Below are positions 3,528 to 39,622 of a DNA stretch of 44,967 nt, piece by piece. Each line of letters begins with the position of its first letter. Positions within the stretch are counted from its first letter, which is position 1. The notes beneath the pieces are model-generated. The model ran no database searches and had not been told where the DNA came from. It was given only the letters and a program-made list of their open reading frames with translations. The stretch covers positions 1 through 44,967 of the forward strand of contig VHBQ01000016.1 of NCBI GenBank assembly GCA_016871855.1, written 5' to 3'. A program made the position numbers and the translations under genes. This stretch comes from Gemmatimonadota bacterium. GTDB lineage: Bacteria > Gemmatimonadota > Gemmatimonadetes > Gemmatimonadales > Gemmatimonadaceae.

Positions 3528-3555
3528 GACGGTGGACGGTGGACGGTGGACGGAC
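3528..3555 (+). repeat. Heptamer array GACGGTG between ALDH and tesB
   Basis: Three perfect units (3528-3534, 3535-3541, 3542-3548) and one degenerate unit begin two bases after the ALDH stop codon. The array occupies most of the short spacer before tesB. It is the same heptamer, in the same orientation relative to transcription, as in the 12854 array. Confidence 0.85.
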
Positions 3556-5737: not shown

Positions 5738-6571
5738 CTACTCCCCCCGCTTCACCTCGTCCCACATCGCGTCGAGCACCGTGAGCCCCGCGGTGCGCAC
5801 GTCCACGTCCCGCGTCTCGCACAGCTGCTCGATCGCCTCGAAGCGGCGCTGGAACTTGGCGTTCGCCTTGTCGAGCGCGAGCGCCGGGTGCACGCCGCAC
5901 TTCCGGCAAAGGTTGACCACGGCGAAGAGCAGGTCGCCGAGTTCGTGCTCCAGCGCCTCGTGGCGCGGGTCGCCGCTGGGGACGCCGTGCGTCGGGAAGT
6001 CGTGCCCGTCGCGCGCGATCAGCTCGGCCACCTCGCCCAGCTCCTCGCGCACTTTCGCCGACGGCCCCTCGACATCGGGCCAATCAAAGCCGACCCCCGC
6101 CGCGCGCTCCTGCAGCCGATGCGCGCGATGCAGGCTCGGCAGCCCCTGCGGCAGCCCCTCCGCCAGCGACTTCCGCGTCCGCGACTTCATCTGCTCCCAC
6201 GGCTCGCGCTTGGAGTCATCGGCCAGGGCGGGGGCGCGTCCACCGTCCACCGTCAACCGTCCACCGTCCGGGTACAGCCACGGATGCCTCTTCACCATCT
6301 TGTGCACCAACGACCCAGCCACGTCCTCGACCGTGAACGCGCCGCGCTCCTCGGCGATGATCGCGTGAAACAGCACCTGGAGCAGCACGTCGCCCAGCTC
6401 GCCGCACATCGCCGCGTCGTCACCGGCGAGCAGGGCGTCGTCGAGTTCGTGCATTTCCTCGTTCAGGTACGGCCGCAGCGAGGCGTGCGTCTGCGCCCGG
6501 TCCCAGGCGTCGCGCGTCCGCAGGTCGCGCATGATCGCCAGCGCGTCGTCCAGTCGCTTCTTTTCTTGCAT
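5738..6571 (-). CDS. mazG: Nucleoside triphosphate pyrophosphohydrolase MazG
   Basis: Hydrolyses (d)NTPs to monophosphates and pyrophosphate, a house-cleaning and stringent-response role. The 277-aa protein has two MazG helical domains. The N-terminal one carries DAWDRAQTHASLRPYLNEE with the metal-binding EExxE (EEMHE) and ELGDVLLQV; the C-terminal one carries EELGEVAELI and EHELGDLLFAVVNLCR. The start is the ATG at 6571 on the minus strand, preceded by GAGGGGGG. Between the domains, a stretch including GGRLTVDGGRAP is encoded by four heptamer repeats (6241-6268) and looks like an insertion relative to E. coli MazG. It is the only minus-strand gene in the window and is divergent from alr with a 35-bp gap. 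Confidence 0.93.
   Translation of the reverse strand: MQEKKRLDDALAIMRDLRTRDAWDRAQTHASLRPYLNEEMHELDDALLAGDDAAMCGELGDVLLQVLFHAIIAEERGAFTVEDVAGSLVHKMVKRHPWLYPDGGRLTVDGGRAPALADDSKREPWEQMKSRTRKSLAEGLPQGLPSLHRAHRLQERAAGVGFDWPDVEGPSAKVREELGEVAELIARDGHDFPTHGVPSGDPRHEALEHELGDLLFAVVNLCRKCGVHPALALDKANAKFQRRFEAIEQLCETRDVDVRTAGLTVLDAMWDEVKRGE
6241..6268 (-). repeat. Heptamer array inside mazG
   Basis: Four CACCGTC-type units on the + strand (6241-6247, 6248-6254, 6255-6261 with one change, 6262-6268), which read GACGGTG on the mazG coding strand. The 28 bp encode part of the interdomain linker of MazG without a stop codon. Same heptamer as at 2577, 3528, 12854 and 27481. Confidence 0.85.
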
Positions 6572-7707: not shown

Positions 7708-8867
7708 GCCGGCGAGCCTGCATCCTCGTGCTCGACGGCGTCGGCATCGGTGAAGCGGCCGACGCCGACGAGTACGGCGACGAGGGGTCGCACACGCTCG
7801 CCAACACGGCGCGCGTCGTGGGCGGCTTTGACCTGCCGAATCTCGAGCGTGCCGGATTGGGCAACCTCGCGCCCATCGCGGGGATGCAGACTGTGGCGTC
7901 AGCGACCGCCGCGCACGGCGTGCTCTGCCCGCAGTCCAAGGGCAAGGACAGCACCACGGGGCACTGGGAGATCGCCGGGGTACATCTGGAGAAGCCGTTC
8001 CCGACATATCCCGACGGCTTCCCGAGCGAGGTGCTCGCGGAGTTCTCGCGACTGACGGGACGCCCCTGCATCGGAAACGTCGTCGGCAGCGGCACGGCGA
8101 TCATCGACCAGTTCGGCGCCGAGCACGAACGCACCGGTGCGTGGATTGTCTACACCTCGGCGGACTCGGTCTTCCAGGTTGCCGCCCACGAAGGGGTCGT
8201 GCCGCTCGAAGAGCTGCATGCCGCCTGTGCCCGTGCCCGTGACCTGCTCGTTCCGCCGCATAACGTGTCGCGCGTGATCGCGCGCCCGTTCATTGGGACC
8301 GAGGGGGCGTGGAAGCGCACGACGAACCGGCGCGATTTCTCCGTGGAATCACCCGACGAGACCCTGCTGGACGCGCTCGCCTCGGCGGGGATTGCCCGGA
8401 TCGGGGTGGGGAAGGTGGACGACCTGTTCGCCCGCCGGGGGCTCGAGGGCGGGCACACCGCCTCCAACGCCGACGGGATCCGCCGGATCGGGGAATGGCT
8501 GGCCGGGGGCGATGGGTTCTGCTTCGCCAACCTTGTAGATTTCGACCAGGCGTTCGGGCACCGAAACGACGCTCCGGGGTTCTATGGAGCGTTGCGCGAG
8601 TTCGACGCCGCCCTTCCACACCTGACGCATGCCCTGCGCGAGGATGACCTGCTCTTCGTGACCGCCGACCACGGCAACGATCCGACGACCCCGTCCACCG
8701 ACCACTCCCGGGAGAATGTCCCCGTGCTGGTGTTCGGCCCGCGGGTGCGTCCGGTGGCGCTTGGCCGTCGGGACACGTTCTCGGACCTGGGCGCCTCGGT
8801 CGCGCACTGGCTCGGCCTGCCGTTCCGCGGGCGGGGTACCTCGTTCCTGCCGGGTCTCCTCGCGTGA
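7704..8867 (+). CDS. deoB: Phosphopentomutase
   Basis: Interconverts (deoxy)ribose-1-phosphate and (deoxy)ribose-5-phosphate, linking nucleoside phosphorolysis to DeoC and the pentose phosphate pathway. The 387-aa protein belongs to the alkaline phosphatase superfamily with Mn ligands. The first metal motif is LVLDGVGIG at the N-terminus; the phosphothreonine lies in KDSTTGHWE; the C-terminal metal ligands lie in NLVDFDQAFGHRND, TADHGNDP and STDHSREN. The GTG start overlaps the alr stop. deoB, cdd downstream and deoC at the window start together outline a salvage route; no nucleoside phosphorylase is in the window. Confidence 0.96.
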   Translation: MSRRACILVLDGVGIGEAADADEYGDEGSHTLANTARVVGGFDLPNLERAGLGNLAPIAGMQTVASATAAHGVLCPQSKGKDSTTGHWEIAGVHLEKPFPTYPDGFPSEVLAEFSRLTGRPCIGNVVGSGTAIIDQFGAEHERTGAWIVYTSADSVFQVAAHEGVVPLEELHAACARARDLLVPPHNVSRVIARPFIGTEGAWKRTTNRRDFSVESPDETLLDALASAGIARIGVGKVDDLFARRGLEGGHTASNADGIRRIGEWLAGGDGFCFANLVDFDQAFGHRNDAPGFYGALREFDAALPHLTHALREDDLLFVTADHGNDPTTPSTDHSRENVPVLVFGPRVRPVALGRRDTFSDLGASVAHWLGLPFRGRGTSFLPGLLA

Positions 8868-9277
8868 TGGCCGACGCCACTACCCTCGCCGCGTTGCGCG
8901 CGGCCGCATTTGAGGCGATGGAGCGTGCGTACGCCCCGTACTCGCACTTTCCGGTGGGGGCGGCGCTGCTCACCCCAGATGGCGCGATCATCAGCGGCTG
9001 CAACGTAGAGAACTCGTCGTATCCCGCCGGCACCTGCGCGGAGCGCGCGGCCATCGGGGCCGCGGTGGCGGCTGGCCACCGCGAGTTCACGCACGTCGTC
9101 GTGGCCACCAATGCCGACCGGCCGACGCCCCCGTGCGGCATCTGCCGGCAGGTGCTGCAGGAGTTCGCGCCGCAGTGCCGCGTCACGAGCATCACCCGTG
9201 GCGGCGCCGTCGCCGAGTGGTCGCTGTCCGAGCTGCTTCCCAATCCGTTCACGCCGTCTTCCCTGCGCCGCGAATGA
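8867..9277 (+). CDS. cdd: Cytidine deaminase
   Basis: Hydrolytic deamination of (deoxy)cytidine to (deoxy)uridine. The 136-aa protein is the small homotetrameric type, with the zinc site in TCAERAA (Cys ligand and catalytic Glu) and PCGICRQVL (two Cys ligands). NVENSSYPAGTCAE is the classic nucleoside-binding segment. The ATG at 8867 shares one base with the deoB stop (TGATG). It feeds uridine toward phosphorolysis and fits the deoB context. Confidence 0.96.
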   Translation: MADATTLAALRAAAFEAMERAYAPYSHFPVGAALLTPDGAIISGCNVENSSYPAGTCAERAAIGAAVAAGHREFTHVVVATNADRPTPPCGICRQVLQEFAPQCRVTSITRGGAVAEWSLSELLPNPFTPSSLRRE

Positions 9278-11694: not shown

Positions 11695-12855
11695 ATGGCG
11701 CCGGCCGGTGCGGAGCTCCCCCCGCTCGTCCTCGTGGCCGATGATGTCGAGGCGAACGTCGAGCTGCTCGCCGACCAGCTGGCCGCGCTCGGCGTGCGCA
11801 CCGTCTCTGCCACCGACGGACCCGGCGCCCTCGCTGCCTGCTTCGAGCACCAGCCCGACCTCTGCATCCTCGACGTCTCGATGCCTGCCGGCGACCTCGG
11901 CGTGGACGATCGCGACGCGGGCTTCGAAGTCTGCCGCCGCCTGAAGAAGGACGCGCGCACCGCGCGCATCCCGGTCATCTTCGTCACCGCGCTCAACGAC
12001 ACCGCCGACCGCGTGAAGGCCATCGAGGCGGGCGGCGACGACTTCCTGCTCAAGCCGCACAACCGCCTGGTCCTCGGCGCGCGCGTGCGCTCCCTGCTCA
12101 AGCTCAAGAGCGCGACTGACGCGCTCGAGCAGAGCTATCGCACCCTGCGCGAACTGGCCAAGGTGCGCGACGACCTGATGCGCATGATCGTGCACGACCT
12201 CAAGACGCCGCTGACGAGCGTGCTCGCCACGCTGGAGATGCTGCGCGAGGGCGACTACGGGCCGATGACCGAGACGCAGTACAAGGCGATTTCGGAAGCG
12301 GAAGGGAAGGCGGAGGATCTGCTCGGACTCATCCAGGACCTGCTGGAGGTGTCGCGCGTGGAGGAGACGCGCATCGCCATCTCGCCGGAGCCCATCGCGC
12401 CGGCCGCGTTCCTCTCAGAACTCAACATCGACTGGACGCCGCGGTTCAGCGCCGAAGGGGCGACGATGGCCTACGAGGCGTCGGACGAAGCCCCGGTCTT
12501 CAACGCCGACAAGGCGCTGCTCCGCCGCGTCTTCGCCAACCTCGTGCAGAACGCGCTCTCGCACTCGGCCACCGCCGTGCACGTGGCCCTCGCCGCCGTG
12601 CGCGATCCGCAGGGGATCCTGTTCACGGTCACTGACAACGGACCGGGCATCCCGGCCGAGTTTCAGGAAGTGATCTTCCGCAAGTTCGAGCAGGTGCGCT
12701 CGCCCAACGCGCCCAAGACGCGCAGCTCCGGTCTCGGTCTCGCGTTCTGTCGCCTCGCTGTGGAAGCCCACGGCGGCCGCATCTGGGTGCGGTCGAAAGA
12801 GGCGGAGGGGAGCACGTTCTATATTCAACTCCCTGTCGAACCTAAGGCGGAGTGA
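11695..12855 (+). CDS. Soluble hybrid: receiver domain fused to histidine kinase
   Basis: The 386-aa protein has an N-terminal receiver (residues about 11-130) with acidic pair D16/D17, phospho-acceptor D60 in LCILDVSMP and the conserved lysine in LLKPHN. A HisKA domain follows with H167 in MIVHDLKTPLTS, then a HATPase_c domain with N-box LVQNALSHS, G1 DNGPGIP and G2 SSGLGLAF. No membrane segment is seen, so it is likely cytoplasmic and driven by phosphorylation of its own receiver. The receiver-first order is that of response-regulator/kinase fusions of phosphorelays. The partner is not in the window. It lies 4 bp after the barrel gene, so it may sense envelope state or simply be co-transcribed. 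Confidence 0.93.
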   Translation: MAPAGAELPPLVLVADDVEANVELLADQLAALGVRTVSATDGPGALAACFEHQPDLCILDVSMPAGDLGVDDRDAGFEVCRRLKKDARTARIPVIFVTALNDTADRVKAIEAGGDDFLLKPHNRLVLGARVRSLLKLKSATDALEQSYRTLRELAKVRDDLMRMIVHDLKTPLTSVLATLEMLREGDYGPMTETQYKAISEAEGKAEDLLGLIQDLLEVSRVEETRIAISPEPIAPAAFLSELNIDWTPRFSAEGATMAYEASDEAPVFNADKALLRRVFANLVQNALSHSATAVHVALAAVRDPQGILFTVTDNGPGIPAEFQEVIFRKFEQVRSPNAPKTRSSGLGLAFCRLAVEAHGGRIWVRSKEAEGSTFYIQLPVEPKAE

Positions 12856-12923
12856 CGGTGGACGGTGGACGGTGGACGGTGGACGGTGGACGGTGGACGG
12901 TGGACGGTGGACGGTGGATCGTG
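12854..12923 (+). repeat. Nine-unit GACGGTG heptamer array between the kinase gene and miaB
   Basis: Nine perfect GACGGTG units (12854-12916) followed by one degenerate unit. The array starts on the last two bases of the kinase stop codon TGA. It is the longest heptamer array in the window and lies 14 bp before a copy of the 64-bp element. Confidence 0.95.
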
Positions 12924-12937
12924 GCCGCTCCCGCCTT

Positions 12938-13001
12938 AATCGCCAATCGCAGTCCTGAATCGCAATCCTGAATCGGAATCCTAGGTCCAAGTCCTCAATC
13001 G
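12938..13001 (+). repeat. 64-bp element, copy 1 (7-mer, four 13-bp units, 5-mer)
   Basis: Structure: AATCGCC, then 13-bp units at 12945-12957, 12958-12970, 12971-12983 and 12984-12996, then AATCG. The first three units follow the pattern AATCGCAATCCTG with small changes; the fourth is GGTCCAAGTCCTC. It ends 7 bp before the miaB ATG and replaces any recognisable ribosome binding site. The same 64-bp layout recurs at 19173-19236 (inverted), 19236-19299 and 20446-20509. Confidence 0.9.
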
Positions 13002-13008
13002 TCGCCTG

Positions 13009-14334
13009 ATGCCAAGCGTTTTCATCGAAACCTACGGCTGCCAAATGAACGTCAGCGATTCCGAGCTCATGCTCGGGAAGCTGGCCGCCGAAGGTTATGA
13101 AGCGGTGGACGCTCCCGAGGGCGCCGACGTCGTGCTGTTGAACACCTGCGCGATCCGCGAGCACGCCGAGACGCGCGTGATCGGCCGGCTCACGGAACTG
13201 CGGCGCTTTCTCAAGCCGGACGCAGTGCTCGGCGTGACCGGCTGCATGGCCCAGCGCCTCGGGCCGCGCCTGCTGGAGACCGATTCGCGCGTCTCGCTGG
13301 TCATCGGCCCCGACGGCTATCGCGCCTTGCCGGCGCTGATTGAAGGAGCGCGCAAGGGCGAGCGGATGATCGCCACCGACTTCGACCTCGAGGAGCACTA
13401 CGAGGATGTGCAGGCCAGTCGGTTCGACGGAGTGAAGGCATGGATCCCCGTCCAGCGCGGCTGCGACTACCGGTGCACGTACTGCATCGTGCCGTTCACG
13501 CGCGGCAGTGAGCGCAGCCGCCAGCTCGAAGACGTCGTGCGCGAGACGGAGCGCGTGGTTGCCGAAGGACTCACCGAGGTCGTCCTGCTCGGCCAGACGG
13601 TGAATTCGTATCACGACGGCGCCCGCGACTTCGCCGATCTCTTGCGCGCGGTCGGTTCGGTGCCCGGTCTGCGCCGCCTGCGGTTTACCAGCCCGCACCC
13701 CAACGACTTCTCCGATCGCGTGATTGCCGCGATGGCCGAGGTCGGGACTGTCTGCGAGCACGTCCACCTGCCGATGCAAAGCGGGAGCAGTCGCACGCTC
13801 AAGCGGATGTTGCGTCGCTACACGCGCGAGGAGTTCCTTGAGTGCGTGGCGCGCCTGCGCGCGGCGATGCCCGGGCTTGGCCTCACGACGGACATCATCG
13901 TCGGCTTCCCCGGCGAGACCGACGAGGATTTCCACGAGACGCTGAGCGCCGTGCGCGAGATTCAGTTCGACGACGCGTTCATGTTCAAGTTCTCGGCGCG
14001 CGAGGGGACGCCGGCGACTCGACTGCCGGCCGAGATGACCGTGCCCGACGACGTCGTGGACGCGCGGTTCAATGAACTGCTTGCCACGGTGCGGGGCATC
14101 GCCCGCGACCGCAACTTCCGCCGCGTGGGTGAGCGGTGTGAAGTGCTCGTGGAGAAGGAGGCCCGCAAGGGCGAGCTGATGCAATGCCGTTCGCGGGACT
14201 TCAAGACGGTGCTGATCCCGGGCGAGAAGGCGCTGATCGGGAAGTACTTCACGGTCGAACTCACCGGCACGACCGGTTCGACGTTCACCGGGCAGGTGGT
14301 GCGTGAGCGCGCGCCGCTGCCGACGACGGGGTAG
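13009..14334 (+). CDS. miaB: tRNA-2-methylthio-N6-isopentenyladenosine synthase MiaB
   Basis: Radical-SAM methylthiotransferase that converts i6A37 to ms2i6A37 in tRNA. The 441-aa protein has the UPF0004 domain with cluster cysteines C11 (TYGCQMN), C47 (NTCAIREHAE) and the cysteine of TGCMAQR. The radical-SAM triad is C152, C156 and C159 (RGCDYRCTYC), followed by IVPFTRGSERSR. The C-terminal TRAM domain runs from about residue 375 to the end (GKYFTVELTG...GQVV). CAIREHAE and PFTRGSERSR are diagnostic for MiaB over MtaB/RimO. The ATG at 13009 has no clear Shine-Dalgarno; the space is filled by repeats. Confidence 0.96.
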   Translation: MPSVFIETYGCQMNVSDSELMLGKLAAEGYEAVDAPEGADVVLLNTCAIREHAETRVIGRLTELRRFLKPDAVLGVTGCMAQRLGPRLLETDSRVSLVIGPDGYRALPALIEGARKGERMIATDFDLEEHYEDVQASRFDGVKAWIPVQRGCDYRCTYCIVPFTRGSERSRQLEDVVRETERVVAEGLTEVVLLGQTVNSYHDGARDFADLLRAVGSVPGLRRLRFTSPHPNDFSDRVIAAMAEVGTVCEHVHLPMQSGSSRTLKRMLRRYTREEFLECVARLRAAMPGLGLTTDIIVGFPGETDEDFHETLSAVREIQFDDAFMFKFSAREGTPATRLPAEMTVPDDVVDARFNELLATVRGIARDRNFRRVGERCEVLVEKEARKGELMQCRSRDFKTVLIPGEKALIGKYFTVELTGTTGSTFTGQVVRERAPLPTTG

Positions 14335-14355
14335 CGACCGCGTCGAAATGATGTC

Positions 14356-14378
14356 GCCGGCAATGCAGTGATGCCGGC
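14356..14378 (+). terminator. Possible hairpin after miaB
   Basis: A 7-bp perfect inverted repeat (GCCGGCA at 14356-14362, TGCCGGC at 14372-14378) with a 9-nt loop lies 22 bases past the miaB stop. No T-run follows. A second, competing pairing between 14352-14358 and 14386-14392 is possible. Confidence 0.35.
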
Positions 14379-14540
14379 ACGGCTCGGCGACGGTGCCATG
14401 ATGCGCACCACCGCTTCGAGCCACTCATTCCACTCATCGCCTGGGCTTTCGCGGCGTACGCCGCGGGGCTGATCGCCGGCCTTTCCTCCGACAGCACGGC
14501 GAGCGCCGCCGCGCTCGGGGGGCTCGCGTCGCTCGGCGCG

Positions 14541-16454
14541 GTGGCGGCGTTGCTCGCCCGGCGCCCGACGCCCGGTGCGATCCTGCTCATCCTCGCCGTC
14601 GGACTCGGCGTTGGCGCCGAGGCCGCGCGGGTGGATCGCGAGTGCATGGCTCGCGAGCGGATGCCGTTTCGCTGCCGCCAGCGTTACGAGCCGCCGCCGG
14701 CGCTCGCGCCGTGGCGGGAGCGCGCGGGCGCCGCGATCGACCGCTACTTCCTGCGCGACACCGGGTTGGTGCGCGCCCTGCTCATTGCCGACACCCGCGG
14801 GCTCGATCCGGAGATGCGCGACCGATACGCCGACGCGGGCATCGTGCATATGCTCTCGATCTCGGGGTTGCACGTCGCAATCGTCTCAGGCGCGATGCTG
14901 ATGCTGCTGCAGGCGGTGCGCGTGCCGGCCGCGGCGGCGCGCTGGACCGGATTAGCGCTGGTAGCTCTCTACGTGTTGGTGATTGGCGCGCCACCGCCCG
15001 CCGTGCGCAGTGCGGTGATGGTCGGCGCACAGGTCGTCTCCATGGCGCTGCAGCGCAACACATCGCCGTGGGCCGCGCTCGCCTGGGGAGGCGGCATCCC
15101 ACTTCTGTACCAGCCGCGCACCGCGGTGGACCTCGGTTGGCAGCTCTCGGTGAGCGGCTTCGCCGCGCTCATCGCGGGGCGGCGTCTGGCGGAGCGCCTC
15201 GCCCCCGATTGGCTCGATGGATGGCGACGCAAGCTGGCGAGCGAACTCATCGTCAGCGTCGTCGCCTCGTTCGCCACGGCGCCGCTCGTTGCGTGGCATT
15301 TCGGGCGCGTCTCGCTGATCGCGCCGTTTGCCAACCTCGCCGCCGGTCCGATCGTCGCGGTGATGCAACCCACGCTCTTCCTGGGACTGGCGCTGTCCTG
15401 GTGGCCGGCGGCCGCCACGCTGGTGGGCGACGCGTCGATTCCGATGCTCCGGGCGTTCGATGCGGTGGCGTGGGCCGGGGCGTCGGTGCCGTGGGCCACG
15501 CTGCACGCCGCGCCCTCGCGCGTGACCGCCGTTGCGCTCGGCGTGGCGTGCGTAGCGGTGCTCGCGGCTTGTGTGCGGCACTTCTGGGAGCGCTCCGCGC
15601 TGATGGCGCTGGCCGCCGTGAGCGTGGCGGCGCTCACACCGACGCCGGGTTCCGGCGCGCTGGAAGTCCATATGATCGACGTGGGGCAGGGGGATGCCGT
15701 CGCCGTGCGCACGCCACGCGGACGCTGGCTCCTGTTCGACGCCGGCAAGGGGGACGAACGCCGCGACATGGGGCGATTCACGGTCGTCCCGTACCTGCGG
15801 GCGCGGGGCGGGCCACTCGTGCTCTTCGCGCTGTCGCATCCGCACGCCGATCACGTGGGCGGGGCGGTATCCGTGCTCAAGGCGATGCGTCCCCCCGCCT
15901 ACCTCGACGCCGCGTTCGCGGGCAGCAGTCCGCCCTATCGGCGTTCGCTCGTCGAGGCCACGCGCGTTGGCGCGGTCTGGCGACGGGCGCGCGCCGGCGA
16001 GGTGCTCGACGTGGACGGTGTGCGCCTTCGCATCCTGGCCCCCGATTCCGCGTGGATGGTGGGGCTGAAAGACCCCAATCTCTCCAGCGTCGTCGTGCGC
16101 CTCGAGTACGGCATCTCCACGATGCTGCTCACCGGCGACGCCGAGCGGCCGGAAGAGGACTGGCTGTTGGCGCGCACCCCCGAGCTCCTGCGCGCCGACC
16201 TGCTGAAGGTGGCCCACCACGGGAGCGGCACCAGCACGTCGGAGGCGTGGCTCACCGCGGTGCGGCCCCGCGCCGCGCTCGTCTCCGTGGCCGCCCGGAA
16301 CTTCTACGGCCATCCGGATCCGGCCGTGATGCGGCGGCTGGTCGCGTCGGGCGCGAGCGTGCTTCGAACCGACCAGCTGGGGCACATCGTGGCGCGGACT
16401 GACGGCACCGGGTGGACCCTGGAGGCGGCTGGTGTGCGCTGGCGCCTGCACTGA
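14541..16454 (+). CDS. comEC: ComEC/Rec2-type DNA internalisation protein
   Basis: Inner-membrane channel for uptake of transforming single-stranded DNA. From the GTG at 14541 it is 637 aa. The central part is the Competence domain (MLSISGLHVAIVSG and many membrane helices). The C-terminal metallo-beta-lactamase-like domain starts near residue 376 (HMIDVGQGDAVAV) with SHPHADHVGG near residue 432, then LTGDAE and KVAHHGSGTST. The upstream frame (from about 14403) encodes a convincing first membrane segment, IPLIAWAFAAYAAGLIAGL, but contains no ATG, GTG or TTG in frame before 14541. The true start could therefore be a rare ATT at 14427, or the N-terminus may be frameshifted from the ATGs at 14398/14401. 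Identity is solid; the start is not. Confidence 0.9.
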   Translation: MAALLARRPTPGAILLILAVGLGVGAEAARVDRECMARERMPFRCRQRYEPPPALAPWRERAGAAIDRYFLRDTGLVRALLIADTRGLDPEMRDRYADAGIVHMLSISGLHVAIVSGAMLMLLQAVRVPAAAARWTGLALVALYVLVIGAPPPAVRSAVMVGAQVVSMALQRNTSPWAALAWGGGIPLLYQPRTAVDLGWQLSVSGFAALIAGRRLAERLAPDWLDGWRRKLASELIVSVVASFATAPLVAWHFGRVSLIAPFANLAAGPIVAVMQPTLFLGLALSWWPAAATLVGDASIPMLRAFDAVAWAGASVPWATLHAAPSRVTAVALGVACVAVLAACVRHFWERSALMALAAVSVAALTPTPGSGALEVHMIDVGQGDAVAVRTPRGRWLLFDAGKGDERRDMGRFTVVPYLRARGGPLVLFALSHPHADHVGGAVSVLKAMRPPAYLDAAFAGSSPPYRRSLVEATRVGAVWRRARAGEVLDVDGVRLRILAPDSAWMVGLKDPNLSSVVVRLEYGISTMLLTGDAERPEEDWLLARTPELLRADLLKVAHHGSGTSTSEAWLTAVRPRAALVSVAARNFYGHPDPAVMRRLVASGASVLRTDQLGHIVARTDGTGWTLEAAGVRWRLH

Positions 16455-16512
16455 GCTTGCGCTCGTGGCAGCAGGCCTGATCGAGCACCGTCGGCCAGAA
16501 GCGCGCGATGCG

Positions 16513-16546
16513 CTGGCAAACATGCGTGGCACCGGCGACTTTTAGG
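16513..16546 (+). promoter_or_regulatory. Candidate fbp promoter
   Basis: CTGGCA (16513-16518) and CGACTT (16536-16541) are 17 bp apart, and the downstream box continues as ACTTTTAGGCAGC. Apart from one T, this matches ACTTTTTAGGCTGC upstream of alr, again 17 bp after a -35-like hexamer. The leader to the fbp GTG at 16574 would be about 25 nt. Weak match to sigma-70 consensus; the shared motif is the main support. Confidence 0.35.
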
Positions 16547-16573
16547 CAGCACTCCACGCGCTGAGGCCCTGCC

Positions 16574-19168
<2,595 letters not shown>

Positions 19169-19172
19169 AGGG

Positions 19173-19236
19173 TGATTTTGGACTTGGACCGAGGATTGCG
19201 ACTGAGGACCTCGATCGAGGATGCCGATTCGCGATC
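19173..19236 (-). repeat. 64-bp element, copy 2 (inverted)
   Basis: The complement reads GATCGCG, then 13-bp units AATCGGCATCCTC, GATCGAGGTCCTC, AGTCGCAATCCTC, GGTCCAAGTCCAA, then AATCA: 64 bp in the same 7+52+5 plan as the copy before miaB. It begins 4 bp after the mutase stop codon and abuts a forward copy at 19236, so the pair is head to head. Confidence 0.88.
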
Positions 19237-19299
19237 ATCGCCCGTCTAATTCCAGCATCGCAATCCTCGATCGAAATCCTCGGTCCAAATCAATAGTCT
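19236..19299 (+). repeat. 64-bp element, copy 3 (forward, first unit diverged)
   Basis: CATCGCC (19236-19242), a diverged unit (19243-19255), then CATCGCAATCCTC, GATCGAAATCCTC, GGTCCAAATCAAT and AGTCT. Together with copy 2 it makes an imperfect palindrome over 127 bp that could fold into a cruciform or long RNA hairpin. It ends 3 bp before the TTG start of the next gene. Confidence 0.82.
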
Positions 19300-19302
19300 C
19301 CC

Positions 19303-20391
19303 TTGTACTCCACCTGCCTCTACTGCCACGCGACCCTCGGCCACAACGAGGCGGTGGAGCATTTCCCCGTGGGGCGTCGGCTGGCGTTCGACCTCTCGAA
19401 TGGCCGTCTCTGGGTAATCTGCGCGCGGTGCAAGCGCTGGAACCTCTCGCCTGAAGAGGAGCGCTGGGCAGCGATCGAGGAGTGTGAGCGGCTCTTTGCG
19501 CAGACGCGCCTGCGCATGAGCACCGACAACATTGGGCTCGCCCGCCTCGCGGAAGGGACCGAGCTTGTTCGGGTCGGTGCGGCGATGCGGCCGGAGATGG
19601 CCGCGTGGCGGTTCGGGGCGCAGCTTGCTGCCCGGCGGCGGCAGTACCGCTGGCTCGTGGCGGGTGGTGCGGTGGCGCTGGGCAGTGTTTACGCAGGGAT
19701 CTCGGCGGCGGGCATCGGCGTCGGGGCGTTCTACAACCTGTGGCAGATCATGGAGCGGGGATACGAACGCGCCACGCGGCTTGTACTGCCGACGCCGAGC
19801 CATATCGCCGAGGATCCAGAGGATCCGCCGGTGCGCTCCGTGTTTGGCATTCGACTGCCGGCAACAAGCCGCGACCCGGCGCGCGTGGAGTCGCATCCGC
19901 GCGTCGAGAGCAAGCACACCCGAAACACCAAGCTCTGGCTGGACCCAGCAGACGAGACCTTGGAAGTGCGCGTGCCGGTCGTCGGTCGCCGCGTCGTGAC
20001 CTACCGTGGGCCTGGGGCCGAGTCCGTGCTTCCAAAGCTCGTTGCGAAGCTCAATCGATTCGGCGGGAAGAAGGTTGATGAGCAGTTGGCCGTGGACATG
20101 CTGTCCACGGTCGCACAGGACCGGGCGGAGAACCTCGCGGCCGGGGTGATCCGTCGCTACGTCGGGAAGAGCCTCGGCACCAAGGAGATGGGCGAGTACG
20201 GCGGTCCGATCTCCCTCGCCCTCGAAATGGCCCTGCAAGAGCAGCGCGAACGCGAACTCCTCGCTGGAGAACTGCTCGAACTCGAGTTCGCCTGGCGCGA
20301 AGCAGAAGAACTGGCTCGCATCGCCGACACCCTGACGTCGTCGAGCATTGATACGGCGCTGGCGCGGCTCAAAGCGCGACTGGACGGATAG
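19303..20391 (+). CDS. Conserved hypothetical zinc-ribbon membrane protein
   Basis: A 362-aa protein of unknown function. The N-terminus carries two CxxC pairs (C5/C8 in CLYC and C40/C43 in CARC) that should bind one zinc, with HFPVGRRLAFD between them. Residues about 112-145 contain a hydrophobic segment (WLVAGGAVALGSVYAGISAAG). The C-terminal half is soluble and charged, ending in a probable coiled coil (ALQEQRERELLAGELLELEFAWREAEELARIAD). The TTG at 19303 places the first zinc pair at the N-terminus; no ATG gives a complete ribbon. The gene is flanked by 64-bp elements on both sides. I have a weak memory of similar proteins in Gemmatimonadota but no assigned role. Confidence 0.78.
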   Translation: MYSTCLYCHATLGHNEAVEHFPVGRRLAFDLSNGRLWVICARCKRWNLSPEEERWAAIEECERLFAQTRLRMSTDNIGLARLAEGTELVRVGAAMRPEMAAWRFGAQLAARRRQYRWLVAGGAVALGSVYAGISAAGIGVGAFYNLWQIMERGYERATRLVLPTPSHIAEDPEDPPVRSVFGIRLPATSRDPARVESHPRVESKHTRNTKLWLDPADETLEVRVPVVGRRVVTYRGPGAESVLPKLVAKLNRFGGKKVDEQLAVDMLSTVAQDRAENLAAGVIRRYVGKSLGTKEMGEYGGPISLALEMALQEQRERELLAGELLELEFAWREAEELARIADTLTSSSIDTALARLKARLDG

Positions 20392-20445
20392 GCTGCGCGA
20401 GTGGCCCCGGTCACGCGCTGCGGCCCGGTCGCGGCCACGCGCCGT

Positions 20446-20509
20446 CATCGCCAATCGGAATCCGGATTCGTGATCCTGAATCGCAATCCGGATTCCAAAT
20501 CCTCTATCG
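20446..20509 (+). repeat. 64-bp element, copy 4
   Basis: CATCGCC, 13-bp units at 20453-20465, 20466-20478, 20479-20491 and 20492-20504 (AATCGGAATCCGG, ATTCGTGATCCTG, AATCGCAATCCGG, ATTCCAAATCCTC), then TATCG. Length and unit order equal copy 1. It lies 54 bp after the zinc-ribbon gene and immediately before the inverted repeat at 20512. Confidence 0.9.
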
Positions 20510-20511
20510 AT

Positions 20512-20555
20512 GTGGTAAACTAAATGGCTGTCGCATCTTAGCCCCCGTTTACCAC
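20512..20555 (+). promoter_or_regulatory. Perfect 9-bp inverted repeat bracketing the leader of the FmdB-like gene
   Basis: GTGGTAAAC (20512-20520) and GTTTACCAC (20547-20555) are exact complements separated by 26 nt, the right arm ending one base before the ATG at 20557. No Shine-Dalgarno is visible in the space. In DNA this could be a two-site operator around a promoter (TAAACTAAAT is AT-rich for this genome); in RNA a stem would hold the start region. Confidence 0.65.
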
Positions 20556-25619: not shown

Positions 25620-26725
25620 TGCCGCATGCGGCGGAAGGCGCGTGGACGAACCGGGAGCGCGCGTGGATGCGGCGCGCGCTCCGGCTTGCCGCGCGTGGTT
25701 GGGGACGGACGGCGCCGAACCCGATGGTCGGCGCCGTCATCGTCCGTGACGGCGTGGTGGTGGGCGTGGGGCACCACGCCCACTTCGGCGAACCGCACGC
25801 TGAAGCGATGGCGTTGGACCAGGCCGGCGATCGCGCCCGCGGCGCCGACGTGTACTGCACGCTCGAGCCCTGCAACGGCCACGGCAAGCAGCCCCCGTGC
25901 AGCGAGGCGTTGATCGCCGCTGGGGTGCGGCGTGTCGTGGCGGCGATTCCCGATCCGAACCCCGCCAAGGCGGGAGGCGCGGCCGCGCTGCGCGCGGCGG
26001 GGATCGCGGTGGAGTTCGGCCTTGAGTCGGCGGAGGCGGCGGAACAGAACGCGCCGTTCCTCCACTGGGCCGGCGGCGCGACGCGACCGTGGGTGACGCT
26101 CAAGTTGGCCGTCTCGCTCGATGGCGCGATCGCCGGCGCTGATCGAGCGCGCGGCTGGCTGACGGGAGAATCCGCCCGTCGCGAGGTGCATCGCCTCCGC
26201 GCCAGCGCCGACGCGATCGCGGTGGGTATTGGCACCGCGATTGCTGACGACCCGGCGCTCACGGTTCGCGGCGTACGCAAGCCGCGTGTGGCGCCGCTGC
26301 GCGTCGTCTTTGACCGGTCCGCACGGCTTCCCGCGGACAGCCAGCTCGCGCGTACTGCGCGCCGCCTGCCAACGCTCATCGTGACGCGCGACCCGTCATC
26401 CGACGCCGCCCGGGCGCTCGCAACGCGGGGCGTCGAGGCCGTGGAGGCTGGCGACCTGCCGTCTGCCCTGCACGCCCTGCACGCGCGGGGGGTGCGGCAT
26501 CTGTTGGTCGAGGGGGGCGCCACGCTGACTGGGGCCCTCTTCGGGGCCAATCTGGTCGATCGGTTGGTTATCTTTCAGGCACCCGTTCTGCTGGGTGCCG
26601 GGGCGCTCCACGCCTTCTCGGCGGTCCCCTCCGCCGACACTGGCGCGCTCGCCCGCTGGCGCGTCGTCGAACGCACCCCGTTCGAGGACGACCTGATGAC
26701 GATCCTCGCCCCACCCGGCCGTTAG
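25619..26725 (+). CDS. ribD: Bifunctional riboflavin deaminase/reductase RibD
   Basis: Second and third steps of riboflavin synthesis: deamination then reduction of the pyrimidine intermediate. The 368-aa protein has an N-terminal cytidine-deaminase-like domain with zinc ligands H60 (HAE, catalytic E62), C85 and C94 (CTLEPCNGHGKQPPC). The C-terminal reductase domain starts near residue 160 (RPWVTLKLAVSLDGAIAG) with LLVEGGATLTGAL. The ATG at 25619 shares one base with the preceding barrel gene. No FMN riboswitch precedes it. Confidence 0.96.
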   Translation: MPHAAEGAWTNRERAWMRRALRLAARGWGRTAPNPMVGAVIVRDGVVVGVGHHAHFGEPHAEAMALDQAGDRARGADVYCTLEPCNGHGKQPPCSEALIAAGVRRVVAAIPDPNPAKAGGAAALRAAGIAVEFGLESAEAAEQNAPFLHWAGGATRPWVTLKLAVSLDGAIAGADRARGWLTGESARREVHRLRASADAIAVGIGTAIADDPALTVRGVRKPRVAPLRVVFDRSARLPADSQLARTARRLPTLIVTRDPSSDAARALATRGVEAVEAGDLPSALHALHARGVRHLLVEGGATLTGALFGANLVDRLVIFQAPVLLGAGALHAFSAVPSADTGALARWRVVERTPFEDDLMTILAPPGR

Positions 26726-26727
26726 CA

Positions 26728-26897
26728 GTCTCTGCCGTTTTCTGTCGTTTTCTGTCGTTCTCTGTCGTTCTCTGTCGTTCTCTGTCGTTTCTGTCGTTTC
26801 TGTCGTTTCTGTCGTTTCTGTTGTTTCTCTGTTGTCTCTCTGTTGTCTCTCTGTTGTCTCTCTGTTGTCTCTCTGTTGTCTCTCTGTTGTTTCTCTG
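26728..26897 (+). repeat. A-free tandem-repeat tract between ribD and ribE
   Basis: 170 consecutive + strand bases contain no A. The tract has three sub-arrays: six 10-bp units like TCTGTCGTTC (26731-26790), four 9-bp units CTGTCGTTT (26791-26826) and six 11-bp units CTCTGTTGTCT (26827-26892), then CTCTG joined to the ribE ATG. No Shine-Dalgarno is possible within it. A TTG at 26832 is in frame with ribE and open through the repeat. Confidence 0.95.
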
Positions 26898-27515
26898 ATG
26901 TTCACTGGCATCGTCTCCGACGTCGGCACCATCATCTCCGCCACGCCCACCGCCGCGGGGCGGGAGTTCGTCGTGCGCTCGGCGTATCCGGACGTCGCCG
27001 ACGGTGACAGCATCGCCTGCGACGGGGTCTGCCTGACGGTGCGGGAATCGTCGGCCGACTCGTTCACGGTTGCGGCGGTGGTGACCACGCTCGAGCGCAC
27101 GACGCTTGGCGACTGGGGCGTCGGGCGGCGGGTCAACACCGAACGCGCGATGGCCCTCGGCGAGCGGCTCGGCGGCCACCTGGTCGCCGGACACGTCGAC
27201 TGCGTCGCGCCGGTGACCCGCGTCGCGCAGAAGGACGACGCCCTGCTGATTGACCTGTCCATCGCGCCCGAGTGGATGCCGCTCATGGTTCCGCACGGCT
27301 CGATTGCCGTCAACGGCGTCAGCCTGACCGTCAACGAACTGATCTCTGGCGGCGTCCAGATTTCGCTCATCGAGTACACCCTGCGCCACACCAACCTCGG
27401 CACGCTCAGCGTCGGCGACCGTGTCAACATCGAGGCCGACATGATCGGCAAGTTCGTGCAGCAGCTTGCCGCGCCGCATCTACCGTCCACCGTCCACCGT
27501 CCACCGTCAGCCTGA
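26898..27515 (+). CDS. ribE: Riboflavin synthase alpha chain
   Basis: Dismutates two 6,7-dimethyl-8-ribityllumazines to riboflavin. The 205-aa protein begins with the invariant MFTGIV, which fixes the start at 26898. The two lumazine-binding repeats are visible: DSIACDGVCLTVRES in the first and GSIAVNGVSLTVNEL in the second, followed by YTLRHTNLGTL and VNIEADMIGKFVQQ. The last residues (PSTVHRPPS) are encoded by heptamer repeats and are probably a late addition. Translation may start without a Shine-Dalgarno or be coupled to reading through the upstream repeat from the TTG at 26832. Confidence 0.95.
   Translation: MFTGIVSDVGTIISATPTAAGREFVVRSAYPDVADGDSIACDGVCLTVRESSADSFTVAAVVTTLERTTLGDWGVGRRVNTERAMALGERLGGHLVAGHVDCVAPVTRVAQKDDALLIDLSIAPEWMPLMVPHGSIAVNGVSLTVNELISGGVQISLIEYTLRHTNLGTLSVGDRVNIEADMIGKFVQQLAAPHLPSTVHRPPSA
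27481..27508 (-). repeat. Heptamer array at the 3' end of ribE
   Basis: Four units (TACCGTC, then three CACCGTC) on the + strand, the reverse complement of GACGGTG. They encode the C-terminal tail of riboflavin synthase and end 7 bp before the ribBA start. Orientation relative to transcription is opposite to the arrays at 3528, 6241 and 12854. Confidence 0.9.
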
Positions 27516-39384: not shown

Positions 39385-39409
39385 GTTCACCGCCACAAGT
39401 GAAGAGATG

Positions 39410-39555
39410 ACGGATGCGGGTTCCGGAAGCCGGTGTGAGTCCGGCGCGGCCCCGCCACTGTAACGGGCGTTGTTTGCCTCGCTCACACACCCACTGGCCC
39501 TGCGCGGCTGGGAAGGGGAGCGAGGGCCCGAAGCCAGGAGACGCCCCGCGTCCGT
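39410..39555 (+). ncRNA. Cobalamin riboswitch aptamer
   Basis: The B12 box AAGCCAGGAGACGCC lies at 39531-39545, and the conserved GGTGTGAGTCCGGCGCGG and CCCGCCACTGTAACGGG segments at about 39432-39466. The closing P1 stem pairs 39410-39420 with 39545-39555 (11 bp, one G-U). All downstream genes encode corrinoid uptake, so B12 binding should repress them. A terminator hairpin follows at 39623. Confidence 0.95.
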
Positions 39556-39622
39556 GCCACACCAGAAGCCTCGGGGGAGGCTGCGTGGCGCTGGGCGCTC
39601 GATGGAGTTGCCGGCGTGCTTG

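What the first reader, a model, noticed from the sequence alone, without database searches (positions are those of the whole stretch)
12938..20509. A defined 64-bp element made of four 13-bp units occurs four times at gene junctions
Copies at 12938-13001, 19173-19236 (inverted), 19236-19299 and 20446-20509 share one plan: a 7-mer NATCGCC, four 13-bp units, a 5-mer NATCG. Units 1-3 are variants of AATCGCAATCCTG, and unit 4 is always of the form (GG/AT)TCCAA-TC. Copies differ from one another by many substitutions but not in length, so the architecture is conserved while the sequence drifts. That suggests a selected structure or binding array, or an old family of non-autonomous repeats, rather than recent slippage. 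I do not know a described family with this plan.
Basis: seen in the sequence. Interest (0 to 1): 0.8.

Follow-up and report, generated by a model that had tools for sequence, protein, structure and literature searches.

The report
64-bp gene-boundary repeats in Gemmatimonadota
A 64-letter DNA motif with TC at ten fixed positions sits between genes at many stable spots in ten of eleven related bacterial genomes examined, kept by selection while its short core word differs between species, which points to an unknown reader of gene boundaries.

Summary
The own genome has 77 copies at E<=1e-3, 68 of 77 without indel. Conserved is a skeleton of ten TC dinucleotides, 7/6 nt apart, over 64 bp. Copies form one-arm or head-to-head two-arm modules, many around a hairpin; none of 147 modules in five species lies inside a called gene. 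The family was found in one genus of Gemmatimonadota: 10 of 11 genomes have 53-119 copies, one has 2; outside only two marginal hits. Copies sit at orthologous junctions, where TC positions agree at 0.99 and degenerate positions at about 0.5. A 4-nt core is nearly uniform in some species and differs between species at the same loci. No RAYT partner, no recent copies. Function is inferred: a transcript-boundary array read by an oligomeric RNA-binding factor, Rho the leading candidate (0.4), or a DNA-level array with a co-evolving binder (0.27). Strict T, the lineage core and start-codon adjacency speak against plain Rho termination.

The parts
12938..13001 (+). 64-bp arm, copy 1, 7 nt before the miaB start codon at 13009
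   Evidence: the model detects a '+' arm in front of miaB in 5 of the 7 relatives whose HK|miaB junction was read, weakly (14 bits) in G006
12854..12918 (-). Heptamer array (GACGGTG)9 at the stop of the histidine-kinase gene; stands where four relatives (G003, G007, G008, G009) carry a '-' 64-bp arm
19173..19236 (-). 64-bp arm, copy 2, left arm of a head-to-head pair, 4 nt after the mcm stop
   Evidence: pair found in 7 of 10 relatives
19236..19299 (+). 64-bp arm, copy 3, right arm of the pair, 3 nt before the TTG start of the 362-aa gene (called znr here) at 19303
20446..20509 (+). 64-bp arm, copy 4, single; keeps the CCGGATTCC core that most relatives with an arm have at this junction
20516..20521 (+). 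TAAACT, -10-like box 6 nt after copy 4, a similar box at this junction in most relatives
   Evidence: sequence, read by eye; naming it a -10 box is inference

Best explanation
SHOWN: an old, genus-wide family of intergenic gene-boundary modules, each made of one 64-nt arm or two head-to-head arms around a centre that in roughly 40% of G000 modules is a strong hairpin. The arm is a polar array of ten TC dinucleotides at 7/6-nt spacing; the 3' end of its C-rich strand usually points at the nearest gene boundary. The TC skeleton and many positions are kept; a short core differs between lineages. INFERRED: the arm works on RNA. When a transcript leaves the centre through the C-rich strand, the weakly folded, G-poor RNA with a 13-nt repeat is loaded by an oligomeric RNA-binding factor, most likely Rho, which ends or limits that transcript; the hairpin then protects the 3' end. 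Two arms make the boundary two-way (convergent genes, or terminator followed by the next promoter). An arm ending 1-12 nt before a start codon would be a leader that limits read-through when translation is poor.
For: C/G ratio of arms: median 1.80, 68 of 68 above 1; 10% of 554 other intergenic 64-mers (both strands counted) reach that median. Arm RNA folds weakly: median -10.0 kcal/mol against -22.7 for 300 random genomic 64-mers. The 13-nt repeat fits the C spacing of 11-13 nt and C>G used to define rut sites (PMC6407284, passages); Rho holds six nt per protomer with the two 3'-most in the core site (PMC11018626, passages). Hairpin at the 5' side: 13 of 37 singles with z<-1.5 against 4 of 37 at the 3' side and 13% of 150 random 51-mers; 10 of 20 pair centres at -14 kcal/mol or below (counts of mine). 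At some orthologous loci a hairpin stays with a changed stem (C24:13337, C33 pair) or changed loop (C35, C13:43669, C55) (by eye, not counted). Convergent junctions over-represented in G000: 13 of 56 modules against 34 of 291 junctions, p=0.03. Arms are replaced at the same place by other pyrimidine arrays in some loci. Genes with the Rho RNA-binding domain: two in 10 of 11 genus genomes, one in G004.
Against: Rho takes C or U before C (recalled), but T is as strict as C here: over 137 gapless elements T sites deviate 17 of 1370 (A 8, C 7, G 2), C sites 16 of 1370; in the unfiltered 60-copy profile T-to-C is the commonest change (25 of 35, my count), which I ascribe to rows out of register by an indel. 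Rho gives no reason for a core uniform in a species and different between species. 53 of 93 start-side arms end 1-12 nt before a called start, among them genes that look like enolase, inorganic pyrophosphatase and Lon, with no room for a promoter between. Gene orientation hardly matters: arms face 36 starts and 41 stops in G000 (my count); against all junctions divergent ones are not depleted (p=0.65; p=0.009 only against junctions of 60 bp or more, where the convergent excess falls to p=0.12); single tandem arms 18 sense, 9 antisense, p=0.12. In pairs the complementary arm can sequester the site. G010 has two Rho genes but 2 elements. Many modules, and one partner of several orthologous pairs, show no strong hairpin. 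No transcript data.
Confidence: 0.4

Rival explanations
1. DNA-level binding array: a sequence-specific DNA-binding protein reads TC/GA every 6-7 bp plus the core at about 50-120 sites per genome, for chromosome organisation or a similar genome-wide task. Sites lie between genes only because a strict 64-bp sequence does not fit inside genes, and abut genes because the genome is compact.
For: Strict T and C at the ten steps; core within-species identity 0.98 in G006 and 0.71 in G009 against ortholog identity to G000 of 0.25 and 0.21; near neutrality to gene orientation; start distances of 1-12 nt, or 37 nt and more, often with promoter-like boxes in the gap, none from 13 to 36.
Against: Does not explain the hairpins kept at some orthologous loci, replacement of an arm by heptamer or decamer arrays at the same site, or the shared pyrimidine-outward polarity of unrelated arrays. 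6.5 bp does not fit the 10.5-bp helical repeat. The core contrast is weak for G002. No binder identified.
Confidence: 0.27
2. Old non-autonomous mobile palindrome (MITE or REPIN-like) whose arms are terminal repeats; copies are homogenised per lineage by rare copying or gene conversion.
For: Head-to-head pairs with variable centre; lineage-uniform core, and a 1-nt shortening shared by 21 of 32 copies in the sampled G006 stretches; palindromic folding.
Against: Positions are orthologous between species (26 pairs with G002, 19 with G009, 8 with G006, 8 with G003 in sampled stretches); highest pairwise identity 0.875, median 0.70 among 68 copies; Y1_Tnp in 2 of 11 genomes; copying would homogenise the degenerate positions too, and it has not; no match in the phage and plasmid collections with copy 1, none of an exact 20-mer in viral contigs.
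Confidence: 0.2
3. Tandem-repeat debris at gene ends, shaped only by avoidance of spurious translation (purine strand gives stop codons after genes; pyrimidine strand has few start codons or ribosome sites before genes).
For: 44 of 49 other arrays near boundaries obey the same polarity (arms of one pair are not independent).
Against: Does not give a 99% conserved TC skeleton beside degenerate positions at about 50% at the same loci, nor a nearly fixed 64-bp length.
Confidence: 0.07

Closest known systems
REP / BIME / REPIN elements
   Same: Intergenic, over 100 copies in many genomes, alternating or inverted pairs, often downstream of genes (PMC2817692 listing; PMC3733652 passages; PMC3116915 listing)
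   Different: Unit is 64 nt, not 20-40 bp; the unit is not itself a palindrome; no GTAG/CGTC tag seen; no RAYT; many positions stable between species
Rho utilisation (rut) sites of Rho-dependent terminators
   Same: C>G, weak folding, C repeated every 13 nt, size near the 70-80 nt bound by Rho (PMC6407284 passages)
   Different: rut sites are defined by composition, not by a fixed sequence or length; here T is as strict as C and there is a lineage-variable core; the hairpin lies upstream of the arm, not downstream as in the RhoTermPredict model
DNA uptake sequences of Neisseria/Pasteurellaceae (recalled)
   Same: Lineage dialects of a repeated word, inverted pairs at gene ends
   Different: Uptake words are about 10-12 bp, present in hundreds to thousands and also inside genes; here 64 bp, about 50-120 copies, none inside called genes
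TRAP-binding triplet arrays (recalled)
   Same: Evenly spaced short words along one RNA strand
   Different: TRAP sites are GAG/UAG about every 5 nt and few per genome

Membership tests
REP/REPIN | 20-40 bp palindromic unit | tested here: not met
   unit is a 64-nt direct TC array; palindromy arises only from paired arms
REP/REPIN | GTAG or CGTC tag at one end | tested here: not met
   no such conserved tetranucleotide at the ends of the aligned copies
REP/REPIN | RAYT (Y1_Tnp) partner in the genome | tested here: not met
   2 of 11 genus genomes have a Y1_Tnp match; own copy IS200-like, no element seen beside it
REP/REPIN | intergenic, many copies, often inverted pairs | tested here: met
   20 pairs and 37 singles in G000; 0 of 147 modules of five species inside called genes
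MITE | near-identical recent copies | tested here: not met
   maximum identity 0.875 among 68 gapless G000 copies
MITE | target-site duplication | not tested
   no empty sites were compared base by base
Rho-dependent terminator (rut) | C>G, C every 11-13 nt over about 78 nt | tested here: met
   68 of 68 arms C/G>1; TC at 13-nt repeats; measured on 64 nt, not 78
Rho-dependent terminator (rut) | YC recognition tolerant of C for U (recalled) | tested here: not met
   T to C in 7 of 1370 sites, T to A in 8, in filtered elements
Rho-dependent terminator (rut) | lies at transcript 3' ends | tested here: inconclusive
   convergent excess p=0.03, p=0.12 for long junctions; many arms abut start codons
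Rho-dependent terminator (rut) | termination lost when Rho is inhibited | not testable with these tools
   needs RNA data
Described RNA family (Rfam) | match to a curated family at gathering score | tested here: not met
   in the window only a cobalamin riboswitch elsewhere

The most novel reading that the evidence does not exclude
A new class of gene-boundary element: a polar 64-nt array read at a 6.5-nt pitch by an undescribed oligomeric factor that recognises T and C strictly, with a short core that factor and sites change together in each lineage, at about 50-120 mostly stable positions per genome; unrelated pyrimidine arrays in the same genome occupy the same places and may feed the same machinery.
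Probability: 0.35. Interest if true: 0.88.

Novelty: new variant of a known kind. Interest (0 to 1): 0.72.

Why it matters
Interspersed repeats of bacteria are usually thought of as mobile, short and palindromic. This family is held at orthologous places across a genus with selection on a TC every sixth or seventh nucleotide, while its core word differs between species. If RNA-level, it is a naturally aligned set of dozens of Rho-type sites per genome with an explicit consensus. If DNA-level, it points to an undescribed, fast co-evolving binder. Either can be tested with a 64-mer oligonucleotide.

Tried and rejected
RAYT/REPIN origin: Y1_Tnp in 2 of 11 genus genomes, own copy IS200-like without elements seen beside it. 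Phage, plasmid or viral origin: no match with copy 1 in the phage and plasmid collections at E<=1e-3 and none of one exact 20-mer in viral contigs. Known RNA family: none at the elements in the window. Pairing of the two arms as the selected feature: within-pair identity at non-TC positions 0.607 against 0.567 shuffled over 17 gapless pairs, p 0.0045, no excess in units 1-2, so compensation is weak. A binder gene inside the dense C38 cluster: its genes look ordinary by eye. Rho paralogue as the co-evolving reader: both Rho proteins look well conserved by eye (several of the canonical ones cut short) and occur in the nearly element-free G010. Element as promoter core: -35/-10-like boxes, read by eye, lie downstream of it where 37 nt or more are free. 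Simple slippage: rejected by the nearly fixed length.
Full report
OBSERVATION. The four copies are at the stated places and exactly 64 bp. blastn of copy 1 gives 48 places in the own genome at E<=10, itself included. Iterated nhmmer on fetched stretches gave 60 copies, and the column profile of those 60 shows what is conserved: TC at element positions 3, 10, 16, 23, 29, 36, 42, 49, 55 and 62, i.e. alternating 7 and 6 nt, with mostly variable letters between. A sequence-only model of 49 copies finds 81 matches at E<=1 and 77 at E<=1e-3; only 150 of over 1300 first-look candidates were scored, so counts are lower bounds. Re-found copies: 77, of which 68 have no indel. In 305 kb of window plus contigs C1 and C2, stretches with 8 or more of ten skeleton TCs occur only at known copies, counting 13-nt register shifts of the same copies.

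DISTRIBUTION. In the genus, 11 of 11 genomes match at E<=1e-3; ten hold 53-119 copies and G010 holds 2. In the family sample 9 of 118 genomes match at E<=1e-5, eight of the genus and one marginal (G012, E 9.8e-6); in the phylum sample 10 of 298, nine of the genus and one marginal (G315, E 9.1e-6). These larger searches used stricter filters and a model made from one species, so diverged relatives elsewhere could be missed; a local scan of the loci held from G012 and G315 found no skeleton of 8 or more. No match of copy 1 in 50,697 phage and 72,556 plasmid records at E<=1e-3; an exact 20-base consensus found none in viral contigs.

ANATOMY. In G000 the 77 copies make 57 modules: 20 head-to-head pairs and 37 singles, none of 57 inside a called gene. 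In five species 147 of 148 modules could be classified (one G000 module lay too near a stretch end): 102 at tandem, 36 at convergent, 9 at divergent junctions, none inside a called gene (genes called by my own simple codon-usage caller; orthologous modules are counted once per species; outside G000 only stretches around elements were read). The 3' end of the arm usually abuts a gene: on the stop side the distance has median -3 and 86% of 113 lie within -10 to +15; on the start side 53 of 93 lie 1-12 nt before the called start, 35 lie 37 nt or more away, 5 overlap, and none lies from 13 to 36. At least one of the long distances is a miscalled start: G000 miaB is counted as 43 but its start at 13009 is 7 nt away. 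The long gaps often hold sigma-70-like boxes (read by eye); short-gap genes look like enolase, inorganic pyrophosphatase, Lon, YebC and PurH (named by eye). Three G000 singles abut a gene with their 5' end instead (C2:23443, C36:17144, C80:4434). Among 37 singles the 5' flank has z<-1.5 in 13, the 3' flank in 4, random 51-mers in 13% of 150; 10 of 20 pair centres fold at -14 kcal/mol or below. At some orthologous loci a hairpin stays while its stem changes (C24:13337 against G002, the C33 pair against G009) or only its loop (C35:9552, C13:43669, C55); at others one or both partners show none (by eye). Paired arms fold into long stems of -50 to -103 kcal/mol.

EVOLUTION. Of the window's junctions, the mcm|znr pair is present in G000 and 7 of 10 relatives; G004 and G007 have short junctions without it and G010 lacks znr at this place. 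The znr|fmdB arm is found in 8 of 10 relatives, weakly in G005 (15 bits) and partly in G007; none was detected in G006 or G010. At HK|miaB the '+' arm in front of miaB was detected in 5 of the 7 relatives whose junction was read (G002, G007, G008, G009, and G006 at 14 bits); G005 has almost no junction, and in G003 the model detects none although by eye the sequence before miaB resembles an arm. Flanking proteins pair elements of G000 with 26 of G002, 19 of G009, 8 of G006 and 8 of G003 in the sampled stretches. These stretches were chosen around elements of the other species, so they cannot give a loss rate. At orthologous sites TC positions agree at 0.99 (gapless pairs: 20 of 26 for G002, 18 of 19 for G009), as they do between non-orthologous copies; degenerate positions agree at 0.53 and 0.49, against 0.47 and 0.47 for non-orthologous pairs (p 0.001 and 0.25). 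Core positions 45-48 agree within G006 at 0.98 and within G009 at 0.71, but between orthologs of G000 and these at 0.25 and 0.21; for G002 the contrast is weak (ortholog 0.53, within G000 0.53, within G002 0.66) and for G003 0.31 against 0.57. Commonest cores: G000 CCTCGGTCC, G002 CCTAAGTCC, G009 CCGGATTCC, G006 CCGTGATCC, G003 CCGAGCTCC, the last partly below 50%. One copy, znr|fmdB, keeps CCGGATTCC or a near variant in most species, G000 included. Maximum identity among 68 gapless G000 copies is 0.875. A protein tree of the genus is poorly resolved and unrooted; G010 has the longest branch and lies beside G007, so origin after the split of G010 and loss in G010 cannot be told apart.

READING. 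Strong: selection acts on the TC skeleton at orthologous places, and a core differs in concert between some lineages. That needs a trans-acting reader or conversion; conversion alone would have homogenised the degenerate positions. Which nucleic acid is read is open. For RNA and Rho: C>G in 68 of 68 arms (median ratio 1.80; 10% of 554 other intergenic 64-mers, both strands, reach that), weak folding (-10.0 against -22.7 kcal/mol for random 64-mers; the opposite strand -15.6), 13-nt repeat (rut definition in PMC6407284, passages; six nt per protomer in PMC11018626, passages), hairpins in part of the modules, convergent excess p=0.03, and genes with the Rho RNA-binding domain: two in 10 of 11 genomes, one in G004. 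Against Rho: T sites are as strict as C sites (17 and 16 deviations of 1370 each, in 137 gapless elements of 30 bits or more from three species; rows with gaps or lower scores were dropped). In the unfiltered 60-copy profile T-to-C is the commonest T change, 25 of 35 (my count), mostly, I think, from rows shifted by an indel. Further against: the lineage core; start-codon adjacency; weak orientation dependence (divergent depletion p=0.65 against all junctions, p=0.009 against junctions of 60 bp or more). I give the transcript-boundary reading 0.4 and the DNA-level reading 0.27.

A WIDER RULE. Other tandem arrays between genes in C1, C2 and the window (7-mers GACGGTG, 10-11-mers AGAGAACGAC, 25-26-mers) show the same polarity: the purine strand follows stops and the pyrimidine strand precedes starts, 44 of 49 arrays within 60 nt of a boundary. 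48 further arrays lay inside called genes and were not scored; six arrays more than 60 nt from a boundary were left out, and the two arms of a head-to-head pair are not independent, so the p-value of 8e-9 is too small. Some modules mix types: at HK|miaB G000 has the heptamer array where G003, G007, G008 and G009 have a 64-bp arm, and C55 has a decamer-like arm opposite a 64-bp arm in G000, G002 and G009. Part of this polarity could come from avoidance of spurious translation.

LITERATURE. Searches for Gemmatimonadetes/Gemmatimonas with repeats and intergenic terms, for REPIN/RAYT/concerted evolution and for BIME/Rho listed no paper whose title or abstract start describes this family; only the top 10-15 of each list were shown. 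Main texts were seen only as passages, of PMC6407284, PMC11018626, PMC3733652 and PMC12306157 (the last two have no 'Gemmatimona' in the main text). Only open-licence papers are held. Statements on uptake sequences, TRAP and the tolerance of Rho for C or U are recalled.

Noticed in passing
G000 C78:221-445 and C7:14607-14798 (loci L216, L217): Two genes with the Rho RNA-binding domain: a canonical one cut by a contig end, and a 515-aa form with an RG-rich N-terminus and a weak match of the RNA-binding domain. Both are found in 10 of 11 genus genomes; in G004 only the second was found.
   Followed up: partly
window 3528-3553, 12854-12918, 27482-27508; also 2577-2661 and 6237-6269: Heptamer arrays GACGGTG / CACCGTC, the first three at gene junctions; 2577-2661 is a head-to-head pair, but it and 6237-6269 lie inside genes as my caller drew them. 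A polarity rule holds for 44 of 49 arrays near boundaries.
   Followed up: partly
window 26729-26897: TC-rich array (TCTCTGTCGT)n filling the space between a called stop at 26725 and the next called start at 26898.
   Followed up: no
L149 (G006:C103) about 7720-8906: About 1.1 kb between two identical '+' arms in front of a znr-like gene, with partial similarity to znr: an apparent tandem duplication bounded by elements.
   Followed up: no
L153 (G010), minus strand, about 1280-1495, and L096: G010 lacks znr between mcm and fmdB and has a (TAGACGG)n array after mcm; one of its two weak matches resembles ATCCGAN heptamers, perhaps a forerunner of the 64-bp array.
   Followed up: no
window 39400-39564: Cobalamin riboswitch (Rfam RF00174, 81 bits).
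   Followed up: no
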